From: Lachnospiraceae bacterium
GTDB taxonomy: Bacteria > Bacillota > Clostridia > Lachnospirales > Lachnospiraceae
Reading direction: 5' to 3'
Assembly (NCBI GenBank): GCA_017482485.1
Contig: JAFUMV010000023.1
Coordinates: 1-33,465 of the forward strand
DNA: 33,465 nt
The position numbers and the translations under genes were made by a program. This document shows positions 7,321 through 21,375 of the stretch, piece by piece (positions within the stretch are counted from its first letter, which is position 1; every line of letters starts with the position of its first letter). A model generated the notes under the pieces. It did no database searches and was not told the DNA's origin. It saw only the letters and a list, made by a program, of their open reading frames with translations.

Positions 7321-10300
7321 ATGTCAAAAAGAAGCAGAGTTTTGCGGAGAGGATTCGTATGGCTATTATGTATTATGCTTGCCGTGCAGCCGGTTATGGC
7401 AGCTGATAGCACCGGAACCGGCAGTGGAGGCAGTTTGATTGGAAACAGCCTGGAAGAGGAATCCTCATCGGGAGAGGAAGTGCCCGAGTCATCGGAATCT
7501 TCAGCGGAGGAGGAAGTGCCCGAGTCATCGGAATCTTCAGCGGAGGAGGAAGTGCCCGAGTCATCGGAATCTTCGGCGGAGGAAGATTCGTCAGAGTCAT
7601 CAGAGTCTGCATCAGAAGACGAAAATTCTGAGTCATCGGAATCTTCATCTGAAGAAGTGTCTGAGGCAGAGGAGTCTTCGGCGGAGGAAGAGGTGTCCGA
7701 GGCTGAGGAATCCTCATCAGAGGAGGAAGGGTCTGAGGCAGAAGAATCCTCATCGGAAGAAGCATCAGAGAGTGCATCAGAAGAAGTGTCTGAATCAGCG
7801 GAGAGTGAGTCCGAGGAAGAATCCGAGTCAGTAACGGAGTCTGAGAAAAATGATATGGAAGGGTATGAGCCTGTCATTTGTGATTCGGAAAGTGTCAGTG
7901 CGGCTTATTATCCTCCGGTTGTCATGATGAGTCTGCGAAGCAGAAGTATTTCCAATTTTAAAAATGAAACATCAATTCAGCTGATCAATGATTCAGACAC
8001 TAATATTCCTGATCGTTATATCAATGAAAACAGTGTGACTGGCTGGAATGGTCTGACTAAGATGGGCCAATATGAATATCTCGGATATGGCAATCTGAAA
8101 GTTCAGGTGGATTATGAGCTGGCGGATGACTATGAACCTGGCGAACTGAAGGTAACTCTGCCCAAGCTTTTGACGAAAGAGGATACCAGCATATGGGAAA
8201 AAGGATGGAGTGATACCTATCCTGCCTATGATATCGGTGGCGGAGACAGCTTATGGGAGCTGGACGCATCAGATGATGACGTTGTGGTGCTGACGAATAA
8301 GATCAAAATGATCAAAGGATCCAGCGGTTATTTCCAGCTGAAGTATTGTAATATTTGCGCTTCCTATTTTGTAGATGATAAATGGACTAAAGAGATTACC
8401 GCTTCCTGGTCAAATGCTTCCGGAGAATTTATTATGAAATCGGAAGAGAGCGTAACTGTTGCGTATATTGGCAGCCAGAAAGACTACTATATCAAAACGC
8501 TGGTAAACCGCAGCGTGGATTACATTGACATTTTGCCGGAAGACTATTTGCCGGCTGACGAGGTCGCAAAATATCATTGGACCGCATATGAATTCAGGAT
8601 CGGTGCCCGTTCTGATGACGCAATAGAATCAGAGGATTCCTACCTTCTGATCACCTTGCCTAAAGGGACGAAATTCCTGAATACAATCAGTACGGTAGCT
8701 ACGCCGGTATACACGGATCCGGAGAGCGGAGAAAGCCTCTATTTAGTTAATACTGCGTATAACTATAAATATTGTGCAATCGGCTATGACACCAATATGT
8801 ATAATCCGAAAGATGCTGTCACAATGGTTGATGTCAAGGCAGATCTGATTTTACGCTACAAAATAGAAACAGACGTACAGCGCGGTGAAGACGCAGCGAC
8901 TCATTATGCAAATGAAATATATGCATCTAAACTGATGACGGCTTTGGGAAGCGTTCCGGATGGAAAGCCGGGCTGGCGCTATATGGAAAGCAAAACATAT
9001 TCCAAAAATCTTTCAGAATTGGATTTTGATTATGGTGGTACGGGACATCATCCGCTGTTTTGTGATAGCGCATTCGATGCAGGCGGGACAGCAACTGTTT
9101 CCAAAAATGATATGGAGACAGAACAGGGAGCTTTATTCCGTTATGCGGTGACCACCGGTATTTCCAGAAGCTATGTCTGTGATCTGGTTTTCGGCGGGGA
9201 TTATATTTACTATAACACCCAGGATTCCGGACTGGTACAGGCTGGAAAAGATGAATATTATTACACCAAGGCTACTTTCAAGACCAGCCGGCTCTGGTAT
9301 GCGGAAGAAGGAGCAGAATCATCCAAATACAGCAAAGCGGGAACTGACCTGTACTATAATATTTTTTATCGTACAGCAGGCAGCAGCGATTACAGGAGTG
9401 TGTATACTGAAAAGAAGTTAATTCCTCATGATAACAGCCAGCTGACGGTCTCTTTCGATAAGAGCCAGCAGGTGATTGATGTTCAGTTCCGTATTTATGA
9501 TATACCGGCGGGATGTACGGTTGACGGAGATATCGCTTTTATTTTGGAGGGCAGAATAAAGCCTTCAGCTGCCAACATTGACCGCATTATTCCAAATACA
9601 GAGACTCGCCAGGATGGAAAAATGGTGTTTTTGGGATATACGAAAGTGTATAATTCTGCAACTCAGGAGCATATGGACGGCAGAGTTGAAGAGAACTTTC
9701 TTGGAACACCGGAACTGGATGATGCGCTGATTGCTCAGGATCGGTCATTACATGACAACAATATTCTGTACAGAAGGAAGGCGGAAGCCGCTGTAAAAGA
9801 ATATTTTCTGGAAGGCTATGTGAGAAAGGATATGTCGGATGCTGAGGAAGACCAGGTCAATAACGGTTGGAATGTTCAGACCCGGCTGTATGTGGACTGG
9901 TCAGAGGACAGTCTGCTTCCGAATGGGATTGCCAAATATACCATGTATGATCTGCTTCCGGAAGATCTGCAGTATCTGGGCGATGAAGATGATATTAGCT
10001 ACAAAGTAACCGAAATAACAATGGATTCTCTTTTGAGCGGTTATACAGAATCTGCGCTTTCTCTGGTGGACGGAACGGTGATTCCGGCGGCGGCATCTGC
10101 GGAATATGTGCGTCAGCATTGCAACTTTACGGTGCAGAAAAATTATAATAACACAAATCGGATCATGCTGAAGTGGGAATTTGACTTTTCCGATAATCCG
10201 CTGACACAGGGAGGAGAATACGGTTTGTTCCCCGTGATTATGGTGAAATTTGATTTCTTCATTCCCAGGGCAAGTTATGTGAAAAACCAGGGAGAATACA

Positions 10301-11739
10301 CCAATCTGGCAGCTGCAATGGTGGATGTTCCGCTGAACGAAAATGGCAATGACAGCTTTAAGGTTGTTGCGGAAGAAAATGTTTATCGTTCTCTGACGGG
10401 AACAGATAATGGTCAATGGGTCGGCAGCAGTGATGATCAGGATGACTGGAAGAATCTGGACGGAAAAGAAGCAAACGATGACAGCAGAGTGGTAATGGGC
10501 GCCTGGGACAGTGTGAGTGTGAAAAATATTACATATGCGCATCAGAATATCAGAAAACAGGTACAGACAGATTTGTATCAGGAGTGGACTGATAAGGCGG
10601 TTGCTACCATAGGAAGTAAGTATCGATATAAGATGAATGTTTCCAGCTCGTCAAAGTATAAAGTGGGAAATATCGTTTTATATGACATTCTGGAAAATGA
10701 AGACGGGTCGGAATGGAAAGGAACTTTCCTTGGTATTGACTGCAGCGAGGCGGAAACGCTGTATGATGAGCAAGATAATAAATCTAATCCGGATCCCGTT
10801 GTTTATTATGCAACAGTGACCAATCCGGGACTTATTGACAGCGGAAGCTGGACGAAAGCGGGAAATTTTAAGGAAGATCTCAGCAAAGTAAAGGCGGTGG
10901 CAATTGATTTAAGAAAGGATAAGGACGGGAATGATTTTTATCTTGAAAATTCAGATAGTTTCAACCTGTATCTGAGTCTGAAAGCCCCCACAGATCCTGA
11001 ATTGTTTGACTGTGTGACCAGAAATACCTTTTTTGCGAAAGATATTAAAATAGTAGACCCCTATGACATCAGTAACATTCATTTTGAGGGTGATCTTTAT
11101 ACAGAAGCAACAGCGGTAACGATCGGAGAAAAGCAGTATTCGGTTGTGTTCTGGAAATTGGATGAGAATAAGGACTTCCTGGCAGGTGCTGTATTCATAC
11201 TGAAAGATGAAAACGGCGAAGTTTATGGAGAAGCGACAAGCGGCAGTAATGGAATTGTCCGCTTCGAAAATGTGAAAGCAGGAAAGTATACACTGGAAGA
11301 GAAAGCAGCGCCGGAAGGATACCAAAAGACGGATGATGTGTGGACGGTGACGGTACATACCGATGGAATTGATTATGTAAGTTTCCAAAAGAACGGTGAA
11401 AATGCAAAAAGATCGCTCTTTGTCAGCAATGCGCCGGTTTCTGAAAACAAGCCCGGGTCCGAACCGGAAAGCACACCTGAATCTGAACCGGAGTCAGAAC
11501 CTGAAAGCAAGGTGCCCGAAGAGCCGAAGGAAAGCGAATCGATCAGCCAGGCAAATGGAAGTGCGGACAGGATATCCGGAATTACCGGAAGAGTTCTGGG
11601 CGCAATGAGAGGCGTTCTGGGTGTAAGAACCGGAGCCGCAACCGGAGATGATACTTCTGTATTGCCCTGGGGAATCGCTCTTGTGGCAGCGCTGGCAGCA
11701 GCAGTTGTAATCATTGTGCGGCGCAAAAAGAAAAAATAG
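7321..11739 (+). CDS. Large secreted Ser/Glu-repeat surface protein with SpaA-like domain and LPXTG-like anchor
   Basis: A 1472-residue exported protein, probably an adhesin. A signal peptide (residues 1-28, basic RSRVLRR then a hydrophobic core ending VMA-A) is followed by a Ser/Glu-rich stalk (about 45-180) that includes three identical 12-residue repeats. The central part (about 190-1265), rich in Tyr, Asp and Gly, is not recognised. A SpaA/Cna-B-type domain lies at about 1272-1365; its Lys1279 (FWKLDE) and Glu1326 (TLEEKAAPEGY) fit the residues that form an internal isopeptide bond. A Pro/Ser/Glu linker (about 1380-1412) leads to ATGDDTS, a hydrophobic helix and the tail RRKKKK. This looks like a sortase signal but has no canonical LPXTG. 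AAGGAG at 7309-7314 supports the ATG. No sortase gene is in the window. Confidence 0.85.
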   Translation: MSKRSRVLRRGFVWLLCIMLAVQPVMAADSTGTGSGGSLIGNSLEEESSSGEEVPESSESSAEEEVPESSESSAEEEVPESSESSAEEDSSESSESASEDENSESSESSSEEVSEAEESSAEEEVSEAEESSSEEEGSEAEESSSEEASESASEEVSESAESESEEESESVTESEKNDMEGYEPVICDSESVSAAYYPPVVMMSLRSRSISNFKNETSIQLINDSDTNIPDRYINENSVTGWNGLTKMGQYEYLGYGNLKVQVDYELADDYEPGELKVTLPKLLTKEDTSIWEKGWSDTYPAYDIGGGDSLWELDASDDDVVVLTNKIKMIKGSSGYFQLKYCNICASYFVDDKWTKEITASWSNASGEFIMKSEESVTVAYIGSQKDYYIKTLVNRSVDYIDILPEDYLPADEVAKYHWTAYEFRIGARSDDAIESEDSYLLITLPKGTKFLNTISTVATPVYTDPESGESLYLVNTAYNYKYCAIGYDTNMYNPKDAVTMVDVKADLILRYKIETDVQRGEDAATHYANEIYASKLMTALGSVPDGKPGWRYMESKTYSKNLSELDFDYGGTGHHPLFCDSAFDAGGTATVSKNDMETEQGALFRYAVTTGISRSYVCDLVFGGDYIYYNTQDSGLVQAGKDEYYYTKATFKTSRLWYAEEGAESSKYSKAGTDLYYNIFYRTAGSSDYRSVYTEKKLIPHDNSQLTVSFDKSQQVIDVQFRIYDIPAGCTVDGDIAFILEGRIKPSAANIDRIIPNTETRQDGKMVFLGYTKVYNSATQEHMDGRVEENFLGTPELDDALIAQDRSLHDNNILYRRKAEAAVKEYFLEGYVRKDMSDAEEDQVNNGWNVQTRLYVDWSEDSLLPNGIAKYTMYDLLPEDLQYLGDEDDISYKVTEITMDSLLSGYTESALSLVDGTVIPAAASAEYVRQHCNFTVQKNYNNTNRIMLKWEFDFSDNPLTQGGEYGLFPVIMVKFDFFIPRASYVKNQGEYTNLAAAMVDVPLNENGNDSFKVVAEENVYRSLTGTDNGQWVGSSDDQDDWKNLDGKEANDDSRVVMGAWDSVSVKNITYAHQNIRKQVQTDLYQEWTDKAVATIGSKYRYKMNVSSSSKYKVGNIVLYDILENEDGSEWKGTFLGIDCSEAETLYDEQDNKSNPDPVVYYATVTNPGLIDSGSWTKAGNFKEDLSKVKAVAIDLRKDKDGNDFYLENSDSFNLYLSLKAPTDPELFDCVTRNTFFAKDIKIVDPYDISNIHFEGDLYTEATAVTIGEKQYSVVFWKLDENKDFLAGAVFILKDENGEVYGEATSGSNGIVRFENVKAGKYTLEEKAAPEGYQKTDDVWTVTVHTDGIDYVSFQKNGENAKRSLFVSNAPVSENKPGSEPESTPESEPESEPESKVPEEPKESESISQANGSADRISGITGRVLGAMRGVLGVRTGAATGDDTSVLPWGIALVAALAAAVVIIVRRKKKK
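7474..7581 (+). repeat. Three tandem 36-bp repeats in the surface-protein stalk
   Basis: Units 7474-7509, 7510-7545 and 7546-7581 each encode EEVPESSESSAE; the DNA is identical apart from a single change (TCAGCG to TCGGCG) in the third. Degenerate versions (SESSAEE, EAEESSSEE) continue to about 7850. Near-identity at DNA level points to recent duplication or slippage, so copy number probably varies between strains. Confidence 0.92.
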
Positions 11740-17636: not shown

Positions 17637-18929
17637 ATGGGCGTGAAAATCAGGCATATTGCCAGTTATGAAGGAAACTGCTGGAAGGAAGAACGTGTAG
17701 AGGAAGCAAAGAATCCGGCAGACAGCCTGGAACTGACAGGCGTAAAAAAACAGAAGGTGCTGGGGTTTGGCGGCTGCTTCAGCGAACTTGGCTGGGAAGC
17801 GCTGCAGCTTGCCAACAAGGAAGAACGGGAAACCTTTCTGGAAGAACTTTTTTCAAAAGACAAATGCGACTTTAATGTTGGACGGGTGCCGATCGGAGCG
17901 AGCGATTTCAGTCTGGCGTGGTACAGCTGCGATGAAGCAGATGGCGACTATGACTTAAAGCACTTCAATATTGAGCGGGATAAACAGTATACGATTCCCT
18001 TTATACGGGAAGCACAGAAACGGCAGAAAGATTTTTCTCTGTTTGCATCTCCCTGGAGTCCGCCTACCTGGATGAAAACGATGAAGGTCTGCAACTACGG
18101 CACAATAAGAATGGAAGACAGGGTGCTGAAAACTTATGCACAGTATTTTATAAAATTTGTGAAAGCATATGAAGCCGAGGGCCTAAAGGTGGCTCAGATC
18201 CATGTTCAGAATGAGCCGATTTCGGATCAGAAATTCCCGTCATGCGTATGGACCGGGGAAAAACTGAGAGTTTTTATCAGGGACTATATAGGACCTGCGT
18301 TGAAAGAGGCGGGGCTGGATACTGAACTTTGGCTGGGAACGATAAACACTACGTTCATGGATTATGCAAATACAGTTCTTGCCGATGAAAAAGCCAGAAG
18401 CTATCTGACCGGCGTGGGATTTCAGTGGGCCGGTAAATATGCCATTGAACAGGTGGAAGAAAGCTATCCGGAACTGCGCCTGATGCAGACGGAAAGCGAA
18501 TGCGGAGATGGAAAAAACAGTTGGGCGTATATGGAATATATTTTCACCCTCATGAGAATTTACTTTAATCATGGTGCTGAGCGTTACGTTTACTGGAATA
18601 TGGCACTGAAAGATGGAGGCATTTCCACCTGGGGATGGTGCCAGAATTCCCTTTGTACAGTCAATCCGGAAACAGGAGAACTGAAATACCAGCCGGAATT
18701 CTATCTGATGAAGCATTTGTCTCATTTTGTGAAGGAAGGCGCAAGGGTGCTTGGAATGAAGGGGCATTGGACGGCAAATTCGCTCGCATTTGAGAATATG
18801 GACGGTTCCATTGTACTGGTGGTGAATAACAATCTGGATTACGACAGGCAGTTTGAATTTGTGCATGGGGAAAAGTCCTTTGCGGCAGAGCTCAAAGCCC
18901 ACAGCCTGCATACATTTTTGATACAATGA
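17637..18929 (+). CDS. Cytosolic GH30-family glycosidase
   Basis: A beta-glycosidase of the glucosylceramidase-like GH30 family (430 aa). Expected landmarks are present: the N-terminal GFGGCFSELGWEAL, the segment RVPIGASDFSLAWYSCDEA, SPWSPPTWMKT, acid/base Glu193 in HVQNEP, and a nucleophile most likely Glu286 in MQTESECGDG. A C-terminal beta domain (about 360-430, NNNLDYDRQFEF) completes the fold. No signal peptide is seen, so it acts on imported substrate, in line with the importer upstream. GH30 covers beta-glucosidase, beta-1,6-glucanase, glucosylceramidase, fucosidase and xylanase activities; I cannot choose between them, though the motifs are closer to the glucosylceramidase-type than to the glucuronoxylanase branch. 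AGGAG at 17627-17631 supports the ATG. Confidence 0.9.
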   Translation: MGVKIRHIASYEGNCWKEERVEEAKNPADSLELTGVKKQKVLGFGGCFSELGWEALQLANKEERETFLEELFSKDKCDFNVGRVPIGASDFSLAWYSCDEADGDYDLKHFNIERDKQYTIPFIREAQKRQKDFSLFASPWSPPTWMKTMKVCNYGTIRMEDRVLKTYAQYFIKFVKAYEAEGLKVAQIHVQNEPISDQKFPSCVWTGEKLRVFIRDYIGPALKEAGLDTELWLGTINTTFMDYANTVLADEKARSYLTGVGFQWAGKYAIEQVEESYPELRLMQTESECGDGKNSWAYMEYIFTLMRIYFNHGAERYVYWNMALKDGGISTWGWCQNSLCTVNPETGELKYQPEFYLMKHLSHFVKEGARVLGMKGHWTANSLAFENMDGSIVLVVNNNLDYDRQFEFVHGEKSFAAELKAHSLHTFLIQ

Positions 18930-18951: not shown

Positions 18952-18984
18952 CACAGATATGTTTCGGCATATCTGTGTTTTTTT
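18952..18984 (+). terminator. Rho-independent terminator after the GH30 gene
   Basis: CACAGATATG (18952-18961) pairs perfectly with CATATCTGTG (18968-18977) across TTTCGG, followed by seven T. The T-run is shared with the start of the palindromic repeat. Confidence 0.92.
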
Positions 18985-19056
18985 GCTCTACAGGAATTTT
19001 CTCCGAAAATTCCTGTAGAGCAAAAATGCGCTTCGCGCAACGATGCGTACTCGCTC
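18980..19056 (+). repeat. Dispersed palindromic repeat, copy 1
   Basis: A perfect inverted repeat with 22-base arms (18980-19001 and 19005-19026) around a three-base TCC loop, core CTCTACAGGAATTTTC, is followed by GCGCTTCGCGCAACGATGCG. A second copy at 21216-21292 is the same over about 77 bases except for a few substitutions, in the same orientation. Both copies begin in the T-run of a terminator. This looks like a REP- or MITE-type element without coding capacity. Weaker similarity to the other copy may continue for about 20 bases. Confidence 0.85.
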
Positions 19057-19094
19057 GCGGTGAAATTGTCGCTTCGTGACCGCGCTCGACGCGG

Positions 19095-19120
19095 AGTGTG
19101 CGCTATTACGCACACTTTTT
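19095..19120 (+). terminator. Second terminator-like hairpin
   Basis: AGTGTGCG (19095-19102) pairs perfectly with CGCACACT (19109-19116), followed by TTTT. It closes a GC-rich, strongly folded stretch (19027-19120) that follows the palindrome and also contains CCGCG-CTCGA-CGCGG. This part is not shared with the second repeat copy. Confidence 0.6.
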
Positions 19121-19173
19121 ATACGGACGGCCACGGTGCGTGGGGATATGGGATAAAAATATGTATGAAATGT

Positions 19174-19202
19174 TTGCATTCGTAAAATGACTTGGTTATA
19201 AT
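19174..19202 (+). promoter_or_regulatory. Promoter of the esterase gene
   Basis: TTGCAT (19174-19179) and a perfect TATAAT (19197-19202) are 17 bases apart, about 100 bases before the start codon. The leader holds a weak hairpin (CAGCATC with GATGTTG, about 19210-19231). Confidence 0.75.
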
Positions 19203-19305
19203 AAAGCAGACAGCATCGGTGGACAGATGTTGCCGGGATGTTTAAAAAGCAGTTTTAAAATATTCGGATTTTAGTGGAGCAGTAGGGCTCAGAGAGGGAA
19301 AAGAC

Positions 19306-20115
19306 ATGAAGTACTTTGAATTTGTGCCGGAAGGCATTGCAGATTGTAATGTACAGGCATATCTGCAGACAGCGGGTAAGTCCAGGGAAATGGCGGAGAG
19401 AGAAATTCCGGCAGTGGTGGTTTGCCCCGGCGGCGGTTATGGGTTTGTATCCGATCGGGAAGCAGAACCTGTGGCTAAGGAATATTTTAACGCCGGATAT
19501 CATGTATTTATACTTACATATTCCGTTTTGGAGAAAGCGGCCGGCTTTTATCCTTTGTGTCAGCTTGCTGCGACTGTGGCGCACATCCGCAAATATGCAA
19601 AGGAGTGGACTGTAGAAGCAGATAAAATTGCAGTATGCGGTTTTTCGGCAGGCGGCCATCTGGCATGCTCTCTGGGAACACTTTATAATGAAGAGAAATT
19701 TTTAAAGGTCTGGAACCGGGAAGATAAGATTCGCCCTGATGCGATGATTTTAGGATATCCGGTAATTCTGTCAAATGAATTGACACATGTACCTTCCATC
19801 GAGAATGTGAGCGGTGCAAAAAAGGGCAGTGAAGAATATGCCTGGTTTGGACTGGACAAACATGTGGATGAGACAACTCCTCCGGCATTTTTGTGGCATA
19901 CTGCACAAGATGGCCTGGTTCCTGTGGAGAACAGTCTCAGTTTTGCTGCTGCCCTTTCCGGCAAAAAGGTACCTTTTGAATTGCATGTTTTGCCCCAAGG
20001 CGGACATGGGATGTCTGTATGCACGAAAGAAGTGGGAACTGCAAATCCGTATAACGCTCGCTGGATGGAGTGGAGCATTGCATGGCTCAACAGATTGTTT
20101 GATTTTGAAAAATAA
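19306..20115 (+). CDS. Alpha/beta-hydrolase, acetylxylan-esterase-like
   Basis: A 269-residue cytosolic serine hydrolase of the BD-FAE/prolyl-oligopeptidase-like group. The oxyanion strand VVVCPGGGYGFVSDREAE is followed by the nucleophile elbow GFSAGG with Ser114; the remaining triad is probably Asp202 (AQDGLVP) and His234 (GGHGM). No signal peptide is present. Relatives often remove acetyl or acyl groups from plant oligosaccharides, which fits a place beside the sugar importer and the GH30 enzyme, but the substrate cannot be read from sequence. It has its own promoter, so it is a separate transcript, and AGAGAGGG upstream serves as ribosome binding site. Confidence 0.85.
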   Translation: MKYFEFVPEGIADCNVQAYLQTAGKSREMAEREIPAVVVCPGGGYGFVSDREAEPVAKEYFNAGYHVFILTYSVLEKAAGFYPLCQLAATVAHIRKYAKEWTVEADKIAVCGFSAGGHLACSLGTLYNEEKFLKVWNREDKIRPDAMILGYPVILSNELTHVPSIENVSGAKKGSEEYAWFGLDKHVDETTPPAFLWHTAQDGLVPVENSLSFAAALSGKKVPFELHVLPQGGHGMSVCTKEVGTANPYNARWMEWSIAWLNRLFDFEK

Positions 20116-20132
20116 AGGTGAGAATGAAAACA

Positions 20133-20153
20133 GAATTTCGCAGCACGAAATTC
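20133..20153 (+). other. Perfect hairpin after the esterase gene
   Basis: GAATTTCG (20133-20140) pairs with CGAAATTC (20146-20153) over the loop CAGCA. No T-run follows. It may stabilise the mRNA end. Read on the opposite strand, GTGCTGCGAAATTCTG resembles GCGCTGCGAAATGCTG next to repeat copy 2 (21290-21305), possibly a decayed relative. Confidence 0.4.
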
Positions 20154-20208
20154 TCGGGCGGAAGCGGGCTGCGAAGGAATAATGTGACAAGGTCTTTCTT
20201 ATAGCATG

Positions 20209-20237
20209 AAAAAGCGGGCTGCCAATTCGGCAGCCCG
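20209..20237 (-). terminator. Terminator of xpt
   Basis: On the minus strand CGGGCTGCC and GGCAGCCCG form a nine-base-pair GC-rich stem (20229-20237 with 20215-20223) over a five-base loop, followed by CTTTTT. It lies 45 bases after the xpt stop codon and between the convergent genes. Confidence 0.75.
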
Positions 20238-20281
20238 TTGCTGTAGCGTAAGAAATTCGGCATTTTGCCCTTTGCGTGAAA

Positions 20282-20866
20282 TCAGTCCTGCTTGCGGAAT
20301 GTGATTTCGCCGGTTTTCTCATCCATACTGTCCACGATGGCGAGAGATTCCAGATGAATCCCTTTGCTGCGGAGAATATTGCCGCCAACCTGAAACCCTT
20401 TTTCAATGACAATTCCGGCGCCCACTAAAGTTGCGCCTGCTTCGCGGACCAGATCTGCCAGTCCTTCCAGCGCCTTCCCGTTGGCAAGAAAGTCATCGAT
20501 CAGAAGTACCTTGTCATTTTCGTTTAAGAATTCTTTTGAAACAATAATGTCATAAACGCGGCCATGTGTATAAGATTCCACCTGACTTGTATACACATCT
20601 CCCGCAATGTTCTTGGTCTTTGTTTTTTTGGCAAAAACAACAGGAACATCAAATGACTGTGCAACGATACAGGCAATGCCGATACCTGACGCTTCGATGG
20701 TCAGGATTTTGTTGATTTCTTCGTTCATGAAACGGCGCTTGAACTCGCGGCCAATTTCTTCAAACAGATGGATGTCCATCTGATGATTTAAAAAGCTGTC
20801 CACTTTCAGGACATTTCCTTCTTTGATTACGCCATCTTTTCGTATTCTGTCTTCCAGAAGCTGCAT
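20282..20866 (-). CDS. xpt: Xanthine phosphoribosyltransferase
   Basis: A purine salvage enzyme that joins xanthine to PRPP to give XMP. The protein (194 aa, same length as Bacillus Xpt) has VLKVDSFLNHQMD (19-31), ILTIEASGI (54-62), VPVVFAKK, and the PRPP-binding loop LLIDDFLANGKA (121-132), then GIVIEKGFQ. The frame is open further upstream, but GGAGG directly before ATG 20866 fixes the start. A promoter at 20898-20926 would give a leader of only about 25 bases, so the guanine riboswitch often found before xpt is absent here. It is divergent from the cation ATPase and has no pbuX transporter partner. Confidence 0.95.
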   Translation of the reverse strand: MQLLEDRIRKDGVIKEGNVLKVDSFLNHQMDIHLFEEIGREFKRRFMNEEINKILTIEASGIGIACIVAQSFDVPVVFAKKTKTKNIAGDVYTSQVESYTHGRVYDIIVSKEFLNENDKVLLIDDFLANGKALEGLADLVREAGATLVGAGIVIEKGFQVGGNILRSKGIHLESLAIVDSMDEKTGEITFRKQD

Positions 20867-20897
20867 GGATTTTTCCTCCAAAATAAAAGATAGCTCT

Positions 20898-20926
20898 ATT
20901 TTACAAATTCTTCGCACGGAAAGCAA
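20898..20926 (-). promoter_or_regulatory. Promoter of xpt
   Basis: On the minus strand TTGCTT (20921-20926) and TAAAAT (20898-20903) are 17 bases apart, giving a start near 20891. Between here and 21057 I see no other feature. Confidence 0.6.
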
Positions 20927-21057
20927 GTGTTAATATGGACTTTATGTGTCTTCTTTTCGGAGAAACGTAACAATTCAGCCTGTATTGTTGAATGCACTCC
21001 GGTCAGAAAAACGGTGACACCTAATATTAAAAATCTGTTAAATAAGTTTTGAATGGA

Positions 21058-21085
21058 TTGACATATTGGGACAAAAAGGTATGAT
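21058..21085 (+). promoter_or_regulatory. Promoter of the riboswitch-ATPase transcript
   Basis: A perfect TTGACA (21058-21063) and TATGAT (21080-21085) are 16 bases apart. The predicted start, about 21091-21093, coincides with the first base pair of riboswitch helix P1. Confidence 0.8.
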
Positions 21086-21091
21086 AAAATT

Positions 21092-21220
21092 ATGAGGGAG
21101 TAATTCCACACCGCGAATCAGCGGTCTGATGTTTGTCCGTCAGAACGGCAGTTGCCCGGACTTCGTTTAAAGAATGAGACTCATACACATGCTAATACTA
21201 GTGTGTGTATGAGTTTTTTT
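21092..21220 (+). promoter_or_regulatory. yybP-ykoY-type Mn2+ riboswitch with expression platform
   Basis: Helix P1 forms from ATGAG (21092-21096) and CTCAT (21180-21184), flanked inside by GGAGTA (21097-21102) and GAATGAGA, the layout of the yybP-ykoY class (GGAGUA ... GAGA). Inner hairpins are ACCGC-GAATCA-GCGGT, and an arm closed by GTCCG/CGGAC whose loop holds CGTCAGAAC, matching the conserved metal-site loop CGUCAnnAC. The P1 3' strand is also the 5' arm of the terminator at 21179-21220. Mn2+ binding should therefore hold P1, disrupt the terminator and switch on the ATPase gene. Confidence 0.82.
21179..21220 (+). terminator. Riboswitch-controlled terminator
   Basis: ACTCATACACA (21179-21189) pairs perfectly with TGTGTATGAGT (21204-21214); the stem extends to 21193/21200 with two G-U pairs. 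T-run 21214-21220. Its 5' arm shares CTCAT with riboswitch P1, so the two structures exclude each other. Confidence 0.88.
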
Positions 21221-21292
21221 ACTCTACAGGAATTTTCTCCGAAAATTCCTGCAGAGCAAAAATACGCTTCGCGCAACGATGCGTACTCGCGC
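21216..21292 (+). repeat. Dispersed palindromic repeat, copy 2
   Basis: Matches 18980-19056 in the same orientation with only a few substitutions. The palindrome (arms 21216-21237 and 21241-21262, loop TCC) carries two A-C mismatches here, so this copy is slightly decayed. It begins in the T-run of the riboswitch terminator and ends about 70 bases before the ATPase ribosome binding site, so it is transcribed in the leader. A 13-base direct repeat TGTTTTGTGGAAA (21305-21317, 21322-21334) follows it. Confidence 0.85.
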
Positions 21293-21375
21293 GCTGCGAA
21301 ATGCTGTTTTGTGGAAATTATTGTTTTGTGGAAAGAATCCCGTGCATACGGAAGTTGCAAAAAGGAGGAAAAAGA

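What the first reader, a model, noticed from the sequence alone, without database searches (positions are those of the whole stretch)
18980..21292. A palindromic, terminator-associated dispersed repeat in two copies
Seen: about 77 bases at 18980-19056 recur at 21216-21292, same orientation, with only a few substitutions. Each begins with a palindrome (22-base arms, 3-base loop; perfect in copy 1) followed by GCGCTTCGCGCAACGATGCG. Each copy's first bases are the T-run of a rho-independent terminator. Two of two copies in this exact position suggests that the element targets, or travels with, terminators. Inference: a REP/MITE-like element, perhaps mobilised in trans, or a modular RNA element that reinforces termination.
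Basis: partly seen in the sequence, partly recalled or inferred. Interest (0 to 1): 0.7.

Follow-up and report, generated by a model that had tools for sequence, protein, structure and literature searches.

The report
Jumping repeat that lands behind terminators
A short DNA element, found in many gut bacteria of one family, has copied itself dozens of times in some genomes, nearly always directly behind a stop signal of transcription, and it carries a stop signal of its own; the enzyme that moves it is not identified.

Summary
The 77-base repeat is the 5' part of a ~136-base element (copy 1: 18985-19120) that ends in its own intrinsic terminator; copy 2 has lost that end. The window's genome holds 25 copies of this type plus at least 8 related ones. 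A covariance model matches 58 of 150 same-family genera, but only 2 of 299 genomes sampled from the phylum, both of the same family; names point to Lachnospiraceae. A hairpin abuts the 5' T-run in 105 of 121 scorable copies, against 33 of 397 other T-runs. End hairpins keep pairing while sequence changes. Terminal inverted repeats and target duplication were not seen. A copy between gyrB and gyrA is absent from 22 related loci, so the element moves. Y1 transposase, reverse transcriptase, IS110 and IS1182 families are each missing from several carriers. Best reading: a non-autonomous, directional, terminator-targeting element, in anatomy like palindrome-ended single-strand transposons, in target like group IIC introns, with an unknown enzyme. 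Nine paper searches gave no description of it.

The parts
18953..18984 (+). native intrinsic terminator (hairpin 18953-18976, T-run 18978-18984) behind the GH30 glycosidase gene 17637-18929; the target of copy 1
   Evidence: sequence, terminator scan, Pfam
18985..19120 (+). copy 1 of the element, full length; model R1 matches 18979-19121 with 138 bits (copy 1 is one of the sequences R1 was built from)
18985..19026 (+). left hairpin P1: arms 18985-19001 / 19005-19021, loop TCC, then A-run 19022-19026 complementary to the native T-run
19027..19095 (+). conserved linker and body (GATGCGTACTCGC 19042-19054, then P2/P3 stems)
19096..19120 (+). the element's own terminator: GTGTGCGC-TATTAC-GCACAC and T-run
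   Evidence: hairpin of -6 kcal/mol or better in 31 of 32 aligned relatives (L115, with an odd 3' end, was left out of that alignment)
21058..21085 (+). promoter-like site TTGACA-16-TATGAT upstream of copy 2
   Evidence: consensus match only; 5 found in the stretch, 3.9 +/- 2.4 expected
21179..21220 (+). native terminator (hairpin and T-run) in the presumed leader of the cation ATPase gene; the target of copy 2
21221..21302 (+). copy 2 of the element, 3'-truncated, without its own terminator
   Evidence: 64 bits

Best explanation
The repeat is a short (about 130-160 bp) non-coding, non-autonomous mobile element of Lachnospiraceae. SHOWN: it lies, in one fixed orientation, at the 3' edge of a T-run that in most copies belongs to an existing intrinsic terminator; it has a 5' hairpin followed by an A-run, a conserved middle, and a 3' hairpin with its own T-run; pairing in the 5' hairpin and in a body stem is kept by compensatory change, and the 3' hairpin persists with many different arm sequences; neither terminal inverted repeats nor a target duplication was detected; at least one copy is an insertion absent from relatives; tandem and nested copies occur. 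INFERRED: an enzyme supplied in trans acts on the folded single strand, using the end hairpins, and joins the element behind a T-tract that lies next to a hairpin (the element's A-run could pair with the target T-run, and its own terminator gives the matching right end). Because insertion leaves the native terminator whole and brings another, harm is small and each copy makes a new target. The mobiliser is not identified. My confidence in a terminator-targeting mobile element is about 0.85; in the hairpin/single-strand route about 0.35.
For: Copy number: 25 copies of this type in the own genome, plus at least 8 places of related types (contigs C146, C21, C19, C102, C101, C68, C42, C88); 63 and 75 matches counted in two Butyrivibrio-type genomes, G186 and G195 (flank and overlapping matches included). 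Target: hairpin of -8 kcal/mol or better abutting the T-run in 24 of 25 own, 56 of 68 scorable (69 in all) named-genome and 25 of 28 family copies; controls 33 of 397 T5+ runs and 26 of 300 random places. Structure: 13 of 35 and 12 of 19 consensus pairs with double changes; 3' hairpin of -6 or better in 31 of 32, with 20 different first 8 bases (not all in one register). Ends: end-to-end similarity 4.78 against 4.69 +/- 1.08 shuffled (32 elements); left and right T-runs no more alike than permuted (n = 87, p = 0.32), identical in 1 of 33 where the left is not TTTTTT. Left T-run looks native: of 27 non-T bases in it (the own type's first element base set aside by hand), 7 are mirrored in the element's A-run and 20 are not. 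Empty site: an element at gyrB-gyrA in 1 of 23 loci by the model, flanks 84-87% identical in the nearest empty genome. Nesting: L003 (copy between native terminator and an older-looking one), L070/L076, L083, L084.
Against: No mobiliser: four candidate enzyme families fail. 16 of 121 copies fail the hairpin test; some are long hairpins by eye, but L267 (gyrB-gyrA), L264, L212 and L274 show none by eye, so a T-tract alone may suffice. No base-level empty site behind a true terminator was obtained: same-genus genomes are too far, and the L257 site had no orthologous upstream gene in G195. The gyr empty site is too diverged to fix the exact junction, and it is one site. The 3' end is lost or altered in 6 of 25 own copies. 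The A-run/T-run pairing as a guide is inference.
Confidence: 0.6

Rival explanations
1. RNA-mediated, SINE-like spread: the element is transcribed by read-through, its RNA ends at its own terminator with a U-tail, and a reverse transcriptase (for instance of a group IIC intron, which inserts behind terminators) copies it into the A/T tract of another terminator.
For: Same target as group IIC introns (PMC8919778, passages seen); element ends in a T-run behind a hairpin; RNA-like covariation; a group II intron end abuts one own copy (L016, Rfam Intron_gpII 44.3 bits).
Against: No RVT_1 match at E <= 1e-10 in 9 of 28 carrier genomes, among them the one-contig genome G121 (95% complete). The element is far too short for a group II ribozyme. 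Truncation polarity, which could speak for or against this, was not measured.
Confidence: 0.18
2. A REP element mobilised by a RAYT / IS200-IS605 Y1 transposase now present or recently lost.
For: Hairpins at both ends, no inverted repeats, no duplication, fixed orientation to the target: the anatomy recalled for this class. 17 of 28 carriers have a Y1 match.
Against: 11 of 28 carriers have none, including the own genome; 9 of 20 non-carriers have one. Over 76 loci around Y1, RT, IS110 and IS1182 genes, from carriers and non-carriers, only one (L141) gave matches up to E = 1, both weak (0.0064 and 0.92).
Confidence: 0.12
3. A conserved structured RNA or terminator module of the host, duplicated occasionally but not a mobile element.
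For: Strong covariation, family-wide spread, location at 3' ends of genes, own terminator.
Against: 25 own copies behind sequences that differ by eye, 91-99% identical among 11 equal-length copies; genomes have their own subfamilies by eye; the gyrB-gyrA copy is present in 1 of 23 loci.
Confidence: 0.1
4. MITE of a DDE or IS110/IS1182 element that prefers terminators.
For: IS1272 (IS1182 family) and its transposon TnSha1 are reported to enter terminator hairpins (PMC4923244, passages seen).
Against: No terminal inverted repeats, no target duplication; native hairpin left whole, whereas TnSha1 deletes part of it; IS1182-type DDE domain in 6 of 19 carriers and IS110 domain in 10 of 19; 3 of 19 carriers (G001, G004, G010; G004 only 58% complete) have none of the four enzyme families.
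Confidence: 0.06

Closest known systems
Group IIC (bacterial class C) introns
   Same: Insert directly behind intrinsic terminators, so that host coding sequences stay intact (PMC8919778, passages seen, citing Robart 2007).
   Different: They are ribozymes with a reverse transcriptase gene; this element is ~136 nt, shows no group II match in Rfam over the element, and occurs in genomes where no RT was found.
SPRITE of Streptococcus pneumoniae
   Same: Small interspersed repeat that resembles an intrinsic terminator and is enriched near 3' ends of genes (PMC3049150, passages seen).
   Different: SPRITE is described as an 18-bp duplex with a U-rich tract; here a multi-hairpin element sits behind a separate native terminator and recurs across a bacterial family. 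No direct sequence comparison was made.
REP/RAYT and IS200/IS605-derived palindromic elements (class features recalled)
   Same: Hairpin ends, no inverted terminal repeats, no duplication, oriented insertion.
   Different: No Y1 enzyme found in 11 of 28 carriers; target is a T-run behind a hairpin.
IS1272 / TnSha1 (IS1182 family)
   Same: Targets hairpins, several of them confirmed terminators.
   Different: Element with a transposase and inverted repeats; cuts inside the hairpin and deletes part of it (PMC4923244, passages seen).

Membership tests
MITE (DDE-type) | terminal inverted repeats | tested here: not met
   end similarity equals shuffled (32 elements)
MITE (DDE-type) | target site duplication | tested here: not met
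   n = 87, p = 0.32; right equals left in 1 of 33 non-T6 cases (own-genome copies not in this test)
MITE (DDE-type) | autonomous IS with the same ends | not tested
   whole genomes could not be scanned for all IS; one search covers 76 enzyme loci only
REP/RAYT | short extragenic palindrome in many copies | tested here: met
REP/RAYT | RAYT/Y1 transposase in the genome | tested here: not met
   no match in 11 of 28 carriers incl. G000 (mostly drafts, so not absolute)
Group IIC intron | insertion behind intrinsic terminators | tested here: met
   105 of 121
Group IIC intron | group II catalytic domains V/VI | tested here: not met
   no Rfam Intron_gpII match over the element
Group IIC intron | intron-encoded reverse transcriptase | tested here: not met
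   no RVT_1 at E <= 1e-10 in 9 of 28 carriers
Known Rfam RNA family | match at gathering score | tested here: not met
   none over the element; only sub-threshold matches of its hairpins to microRNA models
Mobile element in general | polymorphic insertion / empty site | tested here: met
   element in 1 of 23 gyrB-gyrA loci
SPRITE | sequence similarity to the SPRITE model | not tested
   only passages of PMC3049150 were seen

The most novel reading that the evidence does not exclude
A family-wide class of bacterial short interspersed elements that use a transcription terminator as both landing site and right end: the T-tract of the target and the T-tract of the element's own terminator are the joined sequences, and mobility depends on an enzyme outside the usual transposase and reverse-transcriptase families (or on a host function), possibly through the element's U-tailed RNA, a bacterial counterpart of SINEs.
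Probability: 0.2. Interest if true: 0.85.

Novelty: new variant of a known kind. Interest (0 to 1): 0.68.

Why it matters
It would be a widespread repeat family of common gut bacteria with an unusually strict target: the end of a transcription unit. It raises a testable question (which enzyme moves it, given that four obvious families are missing from several carriers), it places extra terminators behind genes and even inside T-box and riboswitch leaders of genes such as aminoacyl-tRNA ligases, and it probably breaks short-read assemblies, since several contigs of the window's draft genome end at copies.

Tried and rejected
Same-genus empty sites: flanks only 65-76% identical. Empty site behind a real terminator for L257: upstream gene not orthologous in the nearest genome. 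Plasmids: no match. Phages: 11 records matched, of which I opened 5; those are unverified, unannotated faecal scaffolds and may be bacterial DNA. Viral contigs: 0 with one strict pattern, which would miss some subfamilies. Mobiliser candidates PF01797, PF00078, PF01548, PF13751: none consistent; tested on chosen handles (48, 48, 31, 31 genomes), nearly all drafts; non-carriers were called by BLAST or by the model with at most 21 scored candidates per genome, so some may be carriers. Weaker own-terminator tail at T-box/riboswitch-type sites: not significant (8 against 84 copies, p = 0.23); the window's copy 2 and L004 did lose their terminator upstream of genes, but that is two cases. T-box at L078, L259, L004 and L129 did not reach Rfam's threshold.

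Rows dropped. One search used 69 of the 136 matches: left out were opposite-strand echoes of the same hairpins, copies whose 5' side is cut by the contig end, and weak or partial matches; it used the best match of 28 genera. L016 counts as 'met' there only because of the intron's end hairpin; L010, L245, L220, L224 and L124 count as misses but look by eye like hairpins longer than the 40-nt window. L115 was left out of alignment A3. In one search, raw counts are 540 T positions (532 opposite A) and 50 non-T positions (22 complementary, 21 opposite A); 23 of the 50 are the own type's first element base and were set aside by hand, and 2 of the remaining 27 belong to the intron-interrupted L016. 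L213, one of the 7 mirrored, is in a shifted register.

Literature: 9 searches gave no description of this element; most subscription papers are not held.
Full report
OBSERVATION. Sequence reading shows the order hairpin, T-run, GCTCTACAGGAATTTTC-TCC-GAAAATTCCTGTAGAGC, A-run, TGCGCTTCGCGCAACGATGCG. The stretch 18955-19125 folds far better than shuffles (z = -8.63). Copy 2 is cut at about 21302.

COPIES IN THE GENOME. A search with 97 bases gave 58 matches: 25 are separate copies, most of the rest are the palindromes of the same copies read backwards, and a few are weak partial matches. A search with the body alone (32 matches) added other subfamilies with different palindromes and the same plan. 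The 25 copies, aligned on the hairpin, are preceded by sequences that differ from one another by eye. By eye 24 are terminators; in L016 the preceding sequence is the 3' end of a group II intron (Rfam Intron_gpII, 44.3 bits), which enters the left arm. In 6 of the 25 my rule found no normal right end (L004, L015, L017, L018, L024, L025). Eleven equal-length copies are 91-99% identical, mean 95%.

SPREAD. BLAST with one full element matched 6 of 61 genomes (own, same genus, one other genus). A model of 26 elements from six genomes (R1) matched 58 of 150 genera of the same family at E <= 1e-4 (own genome included; at most 21 candidates scored per genome, so a lower bound). In 299 genomes sampled from the phylum it matched 2, both of the same family (10 candidates scored per genome). 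No plasmid record matched.

TARGET. For 122 copies (25 own, 69 from named genomes, 28 from other genera) I asked for a hairpin of -8 kcal/mol or better whose foot lies within 3 nt of the T-run: 105 of 121 scorable copies have one, against 33 of 397 other T5+ runs and 26 of 300 random places in the same loci. Among the 69 named-genome copies, the nearest long ORF upstream within 400 nt points towards the element in 46, away in 9, and none was found in 14; downstream, 41 run in the element's direction, 16 against it, 12 none.

ANATOMY. The 5' hairpin has a core AGGAAA...TTTCCT and outer pairs that change on both sides. The P2 stem in the body changes from CG to GC pairs in a group of genera. RNAalifold did not place the 3' hairpin in the wider alignment, where it is out of register; folded one by one, 31 of 32 elements have it at -6 kcal/mol or better, with 20 different first 8 bases. 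The ends are not inverted repeats of each other, and the two T-runs are not copies of each other. The left T-run varies like native terminator tails, while the A-run of the element mostly stays A (7 of 27 non-T bases mirrored). So the element most likely begins after the T-run and ends with its own.

MOBILITY. In Butyrivibrio locus L267 the element lies between gyrB and gyrA (gene names from my reading of the ORF starts). Of 23 loci of this junction, only the query's own holds an element by the model (21 loci are seen to come from different genomes, two were not printed there). In all 22 others both flanks match. In the nearest relative the flanks are 84-87% identical and meet with no element between them. 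Two relatives (L328, L331) have other spacers of similar length there, without the element. Tandem and nested copies (L003, L070/L076, L083, L084) show repeated use of the same place.

MOBILISER. Among carriers, Y1 transposase was found in 17 of 28 (9 of 20 non-carriers), reverse transcriptase in 19 of 28 (10 of 20), IS110 in 10 of 19 (6 of 12), IS1182-type DDE in 6 of 19 (4 of 12). None follows the element. Six of 28 carriers (G000, G001, G004, G010, G123, G178) have neither Y1 nor RT. These are mostly drafts; the own genome is 90% complete and the group II intron seen in it is cut by a contig end. Of 76 loci around such enzymes, one gave weak matches (L141, E = 0.0064 and 0.92).

CONSEQUENCES. 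Elements lie behind T-box leaders (L130, L114; L006, L275, L236) and behind a NiCo riboswitch (L123), and directly upstream of genes whose first 140 residues match models of isoleucine-tRNA ligase (L078, L259), pheS (L114, L275), methionine-tRNA ligase (L004), acetolactate synthase (L130) and a tryptophan transporter protein (L006) (fragments, so below the whole-protein cut-offs). Such genes are presumably transcribed through the element, so its terminator cannot be absolute there, or other promoters serve. A test for weaker tails at such sites was negative. In the window, copy 2 sits in what looks like the leader of a cation ATPase gene and lacks its own terminator.

COMPARISON. In target it is like group IIC introns (PMC8919778, passages); in look like SPRITE (PMC3049150, passages; also PMC10969869, passages); in its ends like single-strand palindrome elements (recalled). 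By the tests made it is not a member of the MITE, REP/RAYT or group IIC families; SPRITE membership was not tested. PMC8040213 (passages) lists palindromic RNA candidates of human microbiomes; the examples in the passages are from Bacteroidetes, and its tables were not open to me, so an unnamed entry there could be this element. PMC4923244 was seen in passages. The other papers in the searches were seen only as listings with the start of the abstract.

VERDICT. A real, mobile, terminator-associated repeat family; reader partly right; mechanism open.

Noticed in passing
L016 (G000:C63) 31-107: 3' end of a group II intron (Rfam 44.3 bits) abuts and interrupts the left arm of an element copy; the contig begins inside the intron, so its gene may be missing from the draft.
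   Followed up: partly
G000 contigs C19, C21, C63, C68, C101, C102, C104, C105, C96: Nine contigs of the draft begin or end within about 250 bases of an element copy, so the repeat probably breaks the assembly.
   Followed up: no
window 7438-7791: Direct repeats of a 36-base period inside the long ORF 7321-11739.
   Followed up: no
L238 and L254 upstream, L246 and L256 inside or behind the element: Another repeat (GCCCCTCA..TGAGGGGC..GGGGAGTTGA type) that also ends at a terminator or is fused to the element's 3' part.
   Followed up: no
L328 (gyrB-gyrA spacer of G203): A different insert of about 150 bases with GC-rich repeats lies at the same junction; L331 (G208) also has a longer spacer without the element.
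   Followed up: no
L128 1405-1500, - strand: Sub-threshold match to Clostridiales-1 RNA (33.4 bits, cut-off 48) directly 3' of the element.
   Followed up: no
L023 left/right arms: The A-run mirrors an unusual native T-run (TTTATTT / AAATAAA), with pairing that extends into the native terminator; possible quasi-palindrome correction.
   Followed up: partly
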